IMG/VR virus record: IMGVR_UViG_3300032287_003113
Span: 1 to 64,000 of that record
Source of the DNA: a virus
DNA: 64,000 nucleotides
Direction: 5' to 3' (one strand)
Part shown: positions 10,885 to 39,569 of the stretch, in pieces
How positions within the stretch are numbered: the first letter of the stretch is position 1
How the letters are laid out: each line of letters starts with the position of its first letter
Notes under the pieces: generated by a model
What the model saw: only the letters and a program-made list of their open reading frames with translations
Told to the model about the DNA's origin: nothing
The model's database searches: none
Position numbers and translations under genes: made by a program

Positions 10885-12507
<1,623 letters not shown>

Positions 12508-26300: not shown

Positions 26301-27287
26301 TTATGCTTTGATAATTCCGTCGATTAGGCCTGGATAGAAGAAGTCGCGATACTTGTCGTATAGCGGAGCAACAGCTTGTTTGAATTTATCTGTATCTTCT
26401 TTGTTTAGTTCTGTGTAAGTTACGCCAATGTCGCTGTGATCTTTTTTAGCAGCAAACGCTTCAGCTTCCTCAACTGACCACTTGCGTTCTAGGCGACTAG
26501 CGTATTTGCATGCTTCGCTAAACTTGGCTTGTTCATCTTCGCTTAATGTAGCTAAGAATTTGTTGCCAATAATAATACTAGTCAAGAACAAATTGTGTTT
26601 GGTGTTGACCATGTACCTCTTGCTTGTATTCTTGAACTGTGCTAGGTAACGTGGAATAGTTGTTTCGAGAGCATCGGCACCAATGCCTTCTTGTTTGAAA
26701 AAGTCTGGGTCAAGATATAGATCTCGCATTGAAAAAACTTGCGGAATAGCACCAATGGCTTCGCAAGTGTCAACAGTTACAGGATTATTTGTTGTGGCGA
26801 ACCCAATACCGCTTAGACTATCTAAATCGCTGATTGGTTTTTCGCTAACGATACAGCGGAATCCACCTGAATATGTAAACTCCATACCTATAGCTGGACT
26901 TTTGTCTTTTAGGCCGTCTAACATCTTACGACCAATTGGGCCTTCTAGTACACGTTTTGCATGATCGTGATCTTGGAAAATAAACGGCATTTCCAATGCC
27001 AAAAACTCCGGGCTATGCCAACGAGCTAAATCAACAACATGCATTTGACTCATTTGAATATCGCCGGAGTCAATTAACATCATTGGGTCAGCTTTAAAAT
27101 ATAATGATGAATCTCTCATTTTTTTGTCAGGATATTTGTTGCTGTATTCTTTTAAAGTAAAAATTTCTACTTCAAATTTGCCGTCGGTTAATTCGGCAAT
27201 TTTTTCTTTAAATGCTTCGGCTGTGCGTAGGAACAAATTTATAGGTTCGTGTGCGATTAACCAGGTGATTTTTTTCTTTTGATTCAT
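26301..27287 (-). CDS. TRAP-transporter DctP-like solute receptor without signal peptide
   Basis: 328 residues from ATG 27287, preceded by TTGGAGAA. Family motifs: LALEMPFIFQDHDHAKRVLE, GMEFTYSGGFRCIV, and GADALETTIPRY. The N-terminus MNQKKKITWLIAHEPINL goes straight into the mature domain with no signal peptide, and no upstream start is available. Related to the split gene at 40446-41401. With no DctQM permease nearby, transport is doubtful. A cytoplasmic ligand-binding or ligand-withholding role is possible. Confidence 0.85.
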   Translation of the reverse strand: MNQKKKITWLIAHEPINLFLRTAEAFKEKIAELTDGKFEVEIFTLKEYSNKYPDKKMRDSSLYFKADPMMLIDSGDIQMSQMHVVDLARWHSPEFLALEMPFIFQDHDHAKRVLEGPIGRKMLDGLKDKSPAIGMEFTYSGGFRCIVSEKPISDLDSLSGIGFATTNNPVTVDTCEAIGAIPQVFSMRDLYLDPDFFKQEGIGADALETTIPRYLAQFKNTSKRYMVNTKHNLFLTSIIIGNKFLATLSEDEQAKFSEACKYASRLERKWSVEEAEAFAAKKDHSDIGVTYTELNKEDTDKFKQAVAPLYDKYRDFFYPGLIDGIIKA

Positions 27288-27316
27288 GGGATTCTCCAAT
27301 AGGATTTTGTATTATA

Positions 27317-27624: not shown

Positions 27625-28008
27625 TTATGCAACCCAGCCCTGTCCGGAAATTGCATGGAACCAGGGATAAAATGAGCTGGGGATATCAAACTGCCATGTA
27701 CCTTCCTGATCAATCCATGCTGTTGGTGGCTGTGCCAAATGTTGATATCGTGGTAATACTTCTGTGCCGTTTACCGTTAATAGTTTGATCTCCACTGCAC
27801 CGCCGTTTGCGTCTACCACTGTACATTTTAAGTTTATAGGGCTAAACAAATCTATACTATAGTTAGTGTCTAGGTCCGTTATCAAATGTCCATTGAGACG
27901 CATACGATAATGTATGTTGCCGTGGGCAACTATGACCAATCGTACTTGCAATTGATCCGAGGTTTTAATATCCAATACGTCGGAGAAAGTGTTTATATCT
28001 TGGTGCAT
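27625..28008 (-). CDS. Beta-rich protein coupled to a radical SAM gene
   Basis: 127 residues (MHQDINTFSDVLDIKTSD). Alternating hydrophobic strands (QVRLVIVAHGNIHYRMRLNG, CTVVDANGGAVEIKLL) and an aromatic C-terminus (SFYPWFHAISGQGW). Its first 44 bases overlap the 3' end of the radical SAM gene in another frame. A carbohydrate-binding or jelly-roll fold is possible. It may be the partner or substrate of that enzyme, which is speculation from overlap alone. Confidence 0.5.
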   Translation of the reverse strand: MHQDINTFSDVLDIKTSDQLQVRLVIVAHGNIHYRMRLNGHLITDLDTNYSIDLFSPINLKCTVVDANGGAVEIKLLTVNGTEVLPRYQHLAQPPTAWIDQEGTWQFDIPSSFYPWFHAISGQGWVA

Positions 28009-29260
28009 AATCTAGTATCGTGTTGTTCCTGATTGTTTCAAAACTTTTTAAGAAACTGACTAATTCTTTCAGTGATTCCTCTGCATCTGCAGGCGGGGTG
28101 TATGTTTTAACAAACTCCAGGTACTCAGTGGCCAACTGTGCAATAATCTCGTGACTTAAATCACTTCTGCGAGTATTCACTTGCGGAGTATACGATCCTA
28201 ATCGATCAACCACAGCCTGTAACTTTGCAACGGTTTCTTGTCTGATATCGTCTGGCATCAGTTCCATACGCAAACAACGTGGTTGGTGCAATATGTTACA
28301 GCTCTCGGCGATAATGTTGTGTTCGATCATGAACTCAAAAACTTGGTCCAGTTCGCTGATAGTAAACAAGTTAGGAGTGATACGTAGTTCTAGTTTTAAT
28401 CCGGGATTACGATCACGCAAGGCCACAAACTTGAGAATGTTTGCCAAGATCTGATCAGTAGGTCCTGGATAACGCACATAATCGTTTAATGACGTAACTG
28501 ACTCTATACTGATACCTAGATGAAACTCTTGGAATCTAGGTATCAATTGTTCTATACGTTCATCGTATATTGTGCCGTTGGTAGTTGTGCCAACTATTAG
28601 ATCTTGTCCATCCAAGTGCTCGCAAATGTCGTAGAAGGCTTGATTATATAATGTTTCTCCACCCAGGAAGTGTATGTAACGTATGTATGGAAACGATTTT
28701 AACTCTGCAACAAAGCGATTGACTGTTGCTGAATCTTCAGTCCAAGACTGATACGGCTTGGGTTCAGCAAATAATCGACTATCCAGCTTGTTTAATTTTT
28801 TATAGTCTGCAACAAGACGTGAGCTTGCTGTGGGGTCGCACATGATACAGGCACTATTACAAGTATTACCTAGGTCTATTTGTAAATCTGTTGGAAAATG
28901 TGGGCTGGCACCCGCATGACTGTTGCTGTATTCAAATACAGGCAAGTGTGGGCTAGAACGAAAGGTTAATGGAAACTCTGCAAGACCAATAGCACTTTTG
29001 TTTAGTTGTCTAACACGACCCGAAAGTTTTCCAAACTGATCTTGGTAGTAACAAGGCTCACACTCTTTGGGTTTGTTGCCGGCTAATAGTTGTTGACGCA
29101 GGTCTCTCATGGGCCCACTGTTGTAAAAATCCATCAGCGAAGTTGTGCGTATGTTGAAGTCGGTAGCACCGTTTTTGCTCCAGCGACACACATCATAACT
29201 ACCATCGTAAGTTAATCTAATGTGGAACCAGGGACTTGAACAGAATGTGTTTTTTAACAT
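27965..29260 (-). CDS. Radical SAM protein with N-terminal twitch-like domain
   Basis: 431 residues. Begins MLKNTFCSSPWFHIRLTYDG, with KECEPCYYQDQ at about residue 66: Cys pattern of a displaced SPASM/twitch auxiliary cluster. The core has DLGNTCNSACIMCDPTASS (CxxxCxxC) and YIHFLGGETLYN (GGE). The C-terminal 100 residues are helical. Members of this layout are common in uncultivated aquatic phages and have no known substrate. Five other radical SAM proteins are encoded in the window. Confidence 0.85.
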   Translation of the reverse strand: MLKNTFCSSPWFHIRLTYDGSYDVCRWSKNGATDFNIRTTSLMDFYNSGPMRDLRQQLLAGNKPKECEPCYYQDQFGKLSGRVRQLNKSAIGLAEFPLTFRSSPHLPVFEYSNSHAGASPHFPTDLQIDLGNTCNSACIMCDPTASSRLVADYKKLNKLDSRLFAEPKPYQSWTEDSATVNRFVAELKSFPYIRYIHFLGGETLYNQAFYDICEHLDGQDLIVGTTTNGTIYDERIEQLIPRFQEFHLGISIESVTSLNDYVRYPGPTDQILANILKFVALRDRNPGLKLELRITPNLFTISELDQVFEFMIEHNIIAESCNILHQPRCLRMELMPDDIRQETVAKLQAVVDRLGSYTPQVNTRRSDLSHEIIAQLATEYLEFVKTYTPPADAEESLKELVSFLKSFETIRNNTILDYAPRYKHFLRRIGY

Positions 29261-29275
29261 ATATTTGGCGGAGAG

Positions 29276-29355
29276 TCAGGGATTCGAACCCTGGATAATA
29301 TTGCTACTATGCCGGTTTAGTAGACCGGTGCCTTCAGCCGCTCGGCCAACTCTCC
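29276..29355 (-). tRNA. tRNA-Ser with unusual ACU anticodon
   Basis: Acceptor GGAGAGT / ACTCTCC, discriminator G, encoded CCA. Type II with a long variable arm. D arm GCC...GGC. Anticodon stem CCGGT / ACCGG encloses CTACTAA, so the anticodon reads ACU (codon AGU) where GCU is the normal form. Confidence 0.85.
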
Positions 29356-29382: not shown

Positions 29383-29658
29383 ATGAAAAAATTAATATTT
29401 CTATTGGCAACATTCTTTTATGTTTCTGCCATGGCTTTTACTACTCAAAAACCTGTTGACTGTTTTGGAACACCTGAAGTTACCAAAATGCTACGAGAAG
29501 AATTCAACGAAGTCATCATATTTGACAGTATCAACAACCTGACCGGCAAAAGCAGAATTTCTTTGTTTGTAAATTCTAAAACTGGAACATGGACCTTGGT
29601 TGAATACGACAACGACAATGCCTGCATTTTAGGTGCTGGTCAAAGTCGTTCCACCTGA
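29383..29658 (+). CDS. Small exported protein
   Basis: 91 residues. Signal peptide MKKLIFLLATFFYVSAMA, then a short domain with two Cys (VDCFGTPEV and DNACILGAG) that could pair. GTWTLVEYDNDNACILGAGQ is a wording shared by small exported proteins in bacteria and phages. Probably periplasmic, of unknown role. The 3' end overlaps the convergent dCMP deaminase gene by 19 bases. A ribosome site (AAAGG) precedes the ATG. Confidence 0.75.
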   Translation: MKKLIFLLATFFYVSAMAFTTQKPVDCFGTPEVTKMLREEFNEVIIFDSINNLTGKSRISLFVNSKTGTWTLVEYDNDNACILGAGQSRST

Positions 29659-30080
29659 CTGACTTCCACGCCCGACTTAGTTAAAAAATCAACGCCGGTG
29701 GTATCTCTGTAGGCTGTGCCAAACCACACCCGAGCTATACCACTTTGATATATCAGTTTGGCACAGTCTAAGCAAGGGCTGTGAGTAACAAATAGATCAG
29801 CACCATGCCCAGACTCATTGCTACGTGCCAGTTTTGCGATAGCATTTGTTTCAGCATGGAGAACTTCTGGTTTGGTTTTAAGTTCATGATGTCCATCCTC
29901 TCTAAGTTCTATTATTTCTTCGCAGTCATTGTCCCAACCGGCGGGCATGCCATTATAACCAATACTGATGATCCTATCATCCTTGACCACAATAGCACCC
30001 ACATGCAATCTACGAGCGTGACTGAGTTCAGCAAATGTTCTTGCTGTTTGCATGTAGGCTTGTACTAACTTGTCTTTCAT
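29640..30080 (-). CDS. dCMP deaminase
   Basis: 146 residues. Zinc site VLHAETNAIAKLA (HAE) and THSPCLDCAKLIYQSGI (PCxxC), with SIGYNGMPAGWDNDCEE upstream, which is the deoxycytidylate deaminase pattern. Produces dUMP for dTMP synthesis, a standard T4-phage nucleotide function. Shorter than T4 Cd (193). ATG overlaps the stop of the omega-like gene as ATGA. Confidence 0.92.
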   Translation of the reverse strand: MKDKLVQAYMQTARTFAELSHARRLHVGAIVVKDDRIISIGYNGMPAGWDNDCEEIIELREDGHHELKTKPEVLHAETNAIAKLARSNESGHGADLFVTHSPCLDCAKLIYQSGIARVWFGTAYRDTTGVDFLTKSGVEVSQVERL

Positions 30081-38363: not shown

Positions 38364-38439
38364 TGGTGCCCTGGGTAGGATTCGAACCCACAATGTCCGC
38401 TCGGTAAAGCGGTGACTATACCATTTTGTCTACCAGGGT
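38364..38439 (-). tRNA. Aberrant tRNA, probably Val (UAC), with abnormal anticodon loop
   Basis: Encoded CCA, good T arm (GTGGG TTCGAAT CCTAC) and D arm (GAC...GTC). The acceptor pairs except A1-C72. The anticodon region CACCGCTTTACCGAGCGG can form a 4-5-bp stem only with an 8-base loop (TTTACCGA) or a 6-base loop (TTACCG). Read as a Val-type loop the anticodon is UAC. Either decayed or a noncanonical decoder. Confidence 0.6.
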
Positions 38440-39485: not shown

Positions 39486-39569
39486 TGGTGGAGAATACTG
39501 GGATCGAACCAGTCGTGCCATAGGCGCCGGATTTACAGTCCAGTGCATCACCATTGATGCTTCTTCTCC
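39486..39569 (-). tRNA. tRNA-Tyr (GUA)
   Basis: Type II with a long variable arm. Anticodon stem-loop CTGGA CTGTAAA TCCGG; T arm ACTGG TTCGATC CCAGT; A73 and CCA encoded. Confidence 0.93.

What the first reader, a model, noticed from the sequence alone, without database searches (positions are those of the whole stretch)
29276..29355. tRNA-Ser with an ACU anticodon
The stem CCGGT/ACCGG leaves CTACTAA, so position 34 is A. Bacterial Ser tRNAs for AGY codons normally have GCU. An A34 would need conversion to inosine or would read AGU mainly. It may be a tuning to AGU-rich phage codons.
Basis: seen in the sequence. Interest (0 to 1): 0.55.

Follow-up and report, generated by a model that had tools for sequence, protein, structure and literature searches.

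The report
Phage serine tRNA with A34 anticodon
A large phage carries an intact serine tRNA whose anticodon begins with an unusual A, so it should read mainly the single codon AGU; close relatives and many other phages carry this kind of tRNA, while cellular genomes seldom do.

Summary
The tRNA is real: 29266-29355, minus strand, tRNA-Ser, loop CTACTAA, anticodon ACU. It is not a read error: three close relatives carry it upstream of the same radical SAM gene, and stems vary with compensation while the anticodon arm does not. It belongs to a recurrent phage class: in scans allowing A or G at position 34, 21 A34 against 204 G34 serine tRNAs (unevenly, 0 of 46 in one scan); in one exact-pattern scan of about 85,000 cellular genomes, 14 loci in 12 genomes. 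Best reading: an auxiliary tRNA with unmodified A34 that reads AGU, while the host's GCU tRNA reads AGC. A published E. coli test of an ACU anticodon found AGU reading, no AGC reading and no inosine. Inosine is therefore not supported. AGU tuning is moderately supported: AGU is the phage's commonest serine codon, but the tree-controlled test was inconclusive. Unexpected: A34 goes with a changed anticodon stem (G30-C40, U31-A39). Such tRNAs already sit in isolates, one annotated tRNA-Ser(act); four paper searches found no description of the phage class.

The parts
29266..29355 (-). tRNA-Ser(ACU) gene, 3' CCA encoded
   Evidence: ARAGORN, Rfam RF00005 56.2 bits, sequence, fold, compensatory changes in relatives
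29312..29328 (-). anticodon arm CCGGT-CTACTAA-ACCGG; base 34 = A at 29321, anticodon ACU 29319-29321
   Evidence: read (alignment columns 28-44; column 35 = base 34)
27965..29260 (-). radical SAM/SPASM protein (431 aa) directly downstream, same strand; synteny marker, no link to the tRNA's function shown
   Evidence: Pfam PF04055 and PF13186; NCBIfam twitch-domain radical SAM 231 bits, cut-off 170
29640..30080 (-). dCMP-deaminase-type protein, not TadA
   Evidence: phrog_174 dCMP deaminase; NCBIfam TadA model only 34.3 bits against a cut-off of 150

Best explanation
A functional auxiliary phage tRNA-Ser with unmodified A34. It should be charged by the host SerRS, which does not read the anticodon, escape TadA because its loop is UACU and not UACG, and pair A34 with U3 to read AGU, the phage's commonest serine codon, while the host's GCU tRNA goes on reading AGC and AGU. 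A phage can afford this because it only adds to the host's set; a cell whose sole AGY tRNA had A34 would lose AGC. Shown here: intact, conserved tRNA; serine identity elements; recurrence in phages; AGU as top serine codon. Inferred: charging, lack of editing in the real host, decoding, benefit.
For: Intact tRNA, anticodon arm invariant in 4 sequences, 5 pairs with compensatory changes. All seven bacterial serine identity elements listed in passages of PMC9976931 are present, and that review says serine identity is independent of the anticodon while G34 is a listed bacterial determinant for Phe, Tyr, Cys, His, Asn and Asp. A34 is correspondingly rare in those six families: 14 A34 against 697 G34, versus 21 against 204 for AGY-serine (Fisher p 4e-6). 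ACU in E. coli: AGU 9.4%, AGC and AGA below detection, AGG 0.36%, no inosine. TadA motif UACG. AGU is the top serine codon in the window and 3 of 3 further stretches, and in 51 of 79 A34 loci against 45 of 159 G34 loci. In 8 of the 12 cellular genomes that hold Ser-ACU a Ser-GCU was also seen.
Against: No expression, charging, modification or decoding data. The cited experiment used a tyrosine tRNA body in E. coli. Close relatives only: 41 of 44 loci with the neighbouring gene show no Ser-ACU, among them those at 45-59% identity. One of three scans had 0 A34 among 46 G34 loci. Codon comparisons pool related contigs; on a tree only 4 supported pairs remain and say nothing. In the window itself AGU is not in excess of other NNU codons. 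The synthetase argument is imperfect: the same review lists G34 for bacterial Thr, yet 14 A34 against 25 G34 Thr tRNAs occur in these loci.
Confidence: 0.72

Rival explanations
1. Drift: a redundant phage tRNA-Ser whose base 34 is free to change because the host reads AGY anyway; A34 has no benefit.
For: SerRS does not check the anticodon; the gene is absent at 45-59% identity relatives; the codon test on a tree is inconclusive.
Against: 72 distinct Ser-ACU sequences with 38 arms in the pooled loci; the stem near the loop changes with base 34; AGU is the top codon more often in A34 loci; stems kept by compensation.
Confidence: 0.15
2. A34 is edited to inosine by the host TadA, giving a tRNA that reads AGU and AGC (and might misread AGA).
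For: The loop differs from that of tRNA-Arg(ACG), CTACGAA (recalled), only at base 36.
Against: TadA motif UACG with no TadA effect at other sites; ACU tRNA not edited in E. coli; no TadA seen in the record: the two PF00383 matches are dCMP-deaminase-like and RibD-like. The host's own TadA is untested.
Confidence: 0.05
3. A34 protects the tRNA from a host nuclease that cuts the GCU anticodon.
For: Phage tRNAs with anticodon-loop changes against VapC-type nucleases are described (PMC10264068, passages).
Against: The same passages call tRNA-Ser(gct) not targeted in mycobacteria; no GCU nuclease was looked for here; the nuclease idea does not by itself predict the link to AGU use.
Confidence: 0.06

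Closest known systems
tRNA-Ser(act) of Rhizobium phage RHph_TM30 (MN988521)
   Same: Same anticodon, annotated tRNA-Ser(act); 81% identity over the tRNA
   Different: Sits in a tRNA cluster with a different anticodon-stem sequence; other phage family
Ser-ACU tRNAs of Salmonella phage Munch, Erwinia phage Hallingskeid and Xanthomonas phage XaC1
   Same: ARAGORN calls act in these 3 of 8 isolate loci fetched
   Different: The record annotation says only tRNA-Ser; the other 5 loci hold Ser-UGA or Ser-GCU
Bacterial tRNA-Ser(GCU)
   Same: Reads AGY serine codons; with the arm masked, Ser-ACU bodies are nearer GCU in about 49 of 73
   Different: G34 and mostly C30-G40, C31-G39 stem pairs
tRNA-Arg(ACG) with I34, the TadA substrate
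   Same: A34, C35 and loop ends alike
   Different: U36 in place of G36; published ACU tRNA not edited
tRNA-Ser(ACU) listed for chlorovirus ATCV-1 (table in PMC4810235, passage)
   Same: Virus-encoded serine tRNA with the same anticodon
   Different: Virus of a eukaryotic alga, where decoding enzymes differ; not examined here

Membership tests
tRNA (RF00005) | Covariance-model score over the gathering score, cloverleaf | tested here: met
   56.2 against 29 bits; 104 of 104 cells of the cloverleaf pair in 4 sequences
Bacterial tRNA-Ser | G73, C72, G2-C71, R4-Y69, C11-G24, large variable arm, G30-C40 (list in PMC9976931) | tested here: met
   Read from the sequence against the list
Bacterial tRNA-Ser | Charged with serine by the host SerRS | not testable with these tools
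   Needs a charging assay; host unknown
Canonical AGY-serine tRNA (GCU) | G34 | tested here: not met
   A34
TadA-edited A34 (I34) tRNA | UACG motif in the anticodon loop | tested here: not met
   UACU; motif
TadA-edited A34 (I34) tRNA | Inosine found at base 34 | not testable with these tools
   Needs tRNA sequencing; an ACU tRNA in E. coli showed none
Codon-compensating phage tRNA | Cognate codon frequent in the phage and rarer in the host | tested here: inconclusive
   AGU is the top serine codon in the phage; host unknown

The most novel reading that the evidence does not exclude
Phages maintain a natural class of serine tRNAs with unmodified A34 that has arisen several times, each time with a re-tuned anticodon stem (G30-C40, U31-A39), to give Watson-Crick reading of AGU on top of the host's GCU tRNA; it would be the exception to the rule that unmodified A34 is all but absent, allowed because SerRS is the one synthetase of an NNY pair that ignores base 34.
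Probability: 0.4. Interest if true: 0.7.

Novelty: new variant of a known kind. Interest (0 to 1): 0.5.

Why it matters
Reviews of wobble ask why unmodified A34 tRNAs are all but absent (PMC11066159, section 4.3). A recurrent phage class offers natural cases with which to test whether A34 is kept out by decoding, by editing or by synthetase recognition. It also gives a rare sharp prediction for what a phage tRNA is for: AGU and not AGC.

Tried and rejected
Read error and pseudogene: rejected. Chance pattern match: of 120 viral rows with the CTACTAA pattern, 99 are Ser-act, 17 give no tRNA and 4 another tRNA; of 98 cellular rows, 14 are Ser-act, 83 give none and 1 is Asn.

Origin by anticodon switch from Ser-UGA: with only the anticodon masked, 43 of 73 Ser-ACU tRNAs were nearest a UGA tRNA and 23 a GCU tRNA, but with the whole arm masked only about 24 of 73 were nearer UGA than size-matched GCU. 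So the likeness lies in the arm: 29 of 72 arms are identical to some UGA arm, against 4.2 (size-matched) or 8 (all) for GCU. A swap of the arm and parallel tuning cannot be told apart.

A phage TadA: not seen; one family search only, and the record may be a fragment. Prophage origin of the Polynucleobacter copies: 10 neighbouring ORFs of two loci gave mixed, mostly unknown phage-family matches; undecided. Codon use on a tree: 4 supported pairs, inconclusive. A-box co-occurrence: Arg-UCU is no commoner with Ser-ACU (20 of 101 against 50 of 205); Arg-ACG is rarer (4 of 101 against 53 of 205), but A34 loci hold fewer tRNAs (6.3 against 9.9 each).

Rows dropped: 5 loci with both anticodons, and loci with under 30 AGY codons (77 of 101 and 132 of 205 kept) or under 60 serine codons (79 and 159 kept); in the trees, tRNAs outside 80-100 bases, with the anticodon not found in place, or duplicate.

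Full report
What is there. The window lies in a 219,879-base virus record. ARAGORN and Rfam both find a tRNA-Ser at 29266-29355, minus strand, anticodon ACU. Loop CTACTAA sits on stem CCGGT/ACCGG; the variable arm is long; CCA is encoded. It is one of 12 tRNAs that the Rfam search finds in the record, all within the window. It ends 5 bases before a radical SAM gene on the same strand.

It is conserved. A search with the radical SAM protein returned 44 loci; the three at 89-99% identity (L566, L567, L568) have Ser-act just upstream, and 41 have none; L597 has a Ser-GCU elsewhere in a large tRNA array. Among the window, L567, L568 and L011, all 26 cloverleaf pairs hold in all 4 sequences, 5 pairs change on both sides, and the anticodon arm is invariant. 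That excludes a simple read error and argues for function, though with few, closely related sequences.

It is a recurrent phage feature. The exact pattern CTACTAA-N(20,45)-GGTTCGAATCC gave 120 rows in viral contigs (a capped list); 99 are Ser-act. The same pattern in the GTDB-species genome collection gave 98 rows, 14 of them Ser-act, in 12 genomes; 6 of the 14 loci are Polynucleobacter. In the 6 betaproteobacterial genomes a Ser-GCU also matched, and 2 further loci have one close by; in the other 4 none was seen with this pattern. Three capped scans that allow A or G at base 34 gave, as Ser tRNAs: 14 A and 95 G (three of the 14 rows were not displayed and are inferred from scan order), 7 A and 63 G, and 0 A and 46 G. 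Together 21 of 225, 9%. In the same loci the six other two-codon NNY families have 14 A34 against 697 G34 (Fisher p 4e-6); these ARAGORN calls were not checked one by one, and related contigs are not independent. Of 9 isolate phage loci fetched, 4 carry Ser-ACU: RHph_TM30, Munch, Hallingskeid, XaC1.

How it probably works. Passages of PMC9976931 list the bacterial serine identity elements, all present here, say that serine identity does not depend on the anticodon, and list G34 as a determinant for Phe, Tyr, Cys, His, Asn and Asp. So serine is the NNY pair in which A34 should not cost charging; this is my inference, and bacterial Thr, also listed with G34, does not fit it well (14 A34 against 25 G34). 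PMC11066159 (abstract, passages, section 3.2 and part of section 4 seen) tested an orthogonal tRNA with an ACU anticodon in E. coli: AGU reassigned at 9.4%, AGC and AGA below detection, AGG 0.36%, no inosine. Its loop is said to equal that of E. coli tRNA-Arg2 apart from the anticodon, hence by inference CUACUAA as here. TadA edits UACG (PMC13170351, passages). The tRNA should therefore add AGU reading only, with the host's GCU tRNA left to read AGC.

Does it fit demand? By mechanical ORFs of 100 aa or more, AGU is the commonest serine codon in the window (367 of 1026) and in three other stretches (37-39% of serine codons). Its share of AGY is 0.587 in the window, equal to other NNU/NNC pairs, and 0.626 against 0.544 in the three stretches. 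Across viral loci AGU is the top serine codon in 51 of 79 with Ser-ACU against 45 of 159 with Ser-GCU, and the AGU share of serine stays higher when NNU use is matched (0.31 against 0.25, p 0.006). The AGY-only difference is small (regression 0.048, s.e. 0.014). On a tree 4 supported pairs remain, which cannot decide.

An unexpected regularity. Ser-ACU tRNAs mostly have G30-C40 (65 of 73) and U31-A39 (48 of 73); Ser-GCU tRNAs mostly C30-G40 (121 of 183) and C31-G39 (133 of 183); Ser-UGA tRNAs resemble the ACU type (85 and 75 of 92). With the arm left out the bodies of Ser-ACU are nearer GCU. On arm-free trees, 8 supported independent pairs differ in base 34; G30-C40 goes with A34 in 6.2 and against in 0.0 (FastTree, median p 0.03) or 5.7 and 0.5 (IQ-TREE quick, p 0.06); U31-A39 5.9 and 0.2 (p 0.03) or 4.9 and 0.0 (p 0.06). 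Scoring 31-39 as 'not C-G' is weaker (p 0.125 and 0.25), and the outer pairs 27-43, 28-42 and 29-41 show no significant link. Thr and Leu show a similar G34 to C31-G39 tendency in small samples; Arg(ACG) does not follow it. [quoted passage not shown] G30-C40 is also a serine identity element, which could explain that pair otherwise. With many comparisons and few pairs this is suggestive.

How often it arose. On a tree with base 34 masked, 73 ACU and 182 GCU tRNAs need at least 18 changes (shuffled labels 63), 30-34 on arm-free trees. Few branches are well supported; 6 separate clades with 95% support and 11 with 80% hold both types. So: inherited within groups, but gained or lost more than once.

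Known or new. Single cases are in databases and a review table lists tRNA-Ser(ACU) for a chlorovirus. Four searches of the held open-access library found no paper on phage Ser(ACU) (none; only that review). Subscription papers are not held.

Noticed in passing
39489-39569 (-): A 12th tRNA, found by Rfam (37.3 bits) and missed by ARAGORN; the loop CTGTAAA and long variable arm suggest tRNA-Tyr(GUA).
   Followed up: partly
38364-38439 (-): A tRNA that ARAGORN cannot name: stem CCGCT/AGCGG leaves a 6-base loop TTACCG; Rfam 41.2 bits. Possibly defective, or with an altered loop.
   Followed up: no
viral loci: In phage Ser, Thr and Leu tRNAs the stem pair 31-39 tends to follow base 34 (C-G with G34, A-U types with A34 or U34); Arg does not.
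   Followed up: partly
L124, L187, L205, L206, L214, L219: Polynucleobacter genomes carry an accessory Ser-ACU, in some beside Gly-CCC and Thr-CGU, as well as a Ser-GCU; one genome has three copies.
   Followed up: partly
L621 166-1236 (-) (record 218165-219235): A 356-aa ORF with a RibD-like deaminase domain at its N-terminus and a lysine-rich tail.
   Followed up: no
26301-27299 (-) and 10885-12504 (-): The phage encodes a DctP-type solute-binding protein and a GroEL.
   Followed up: no
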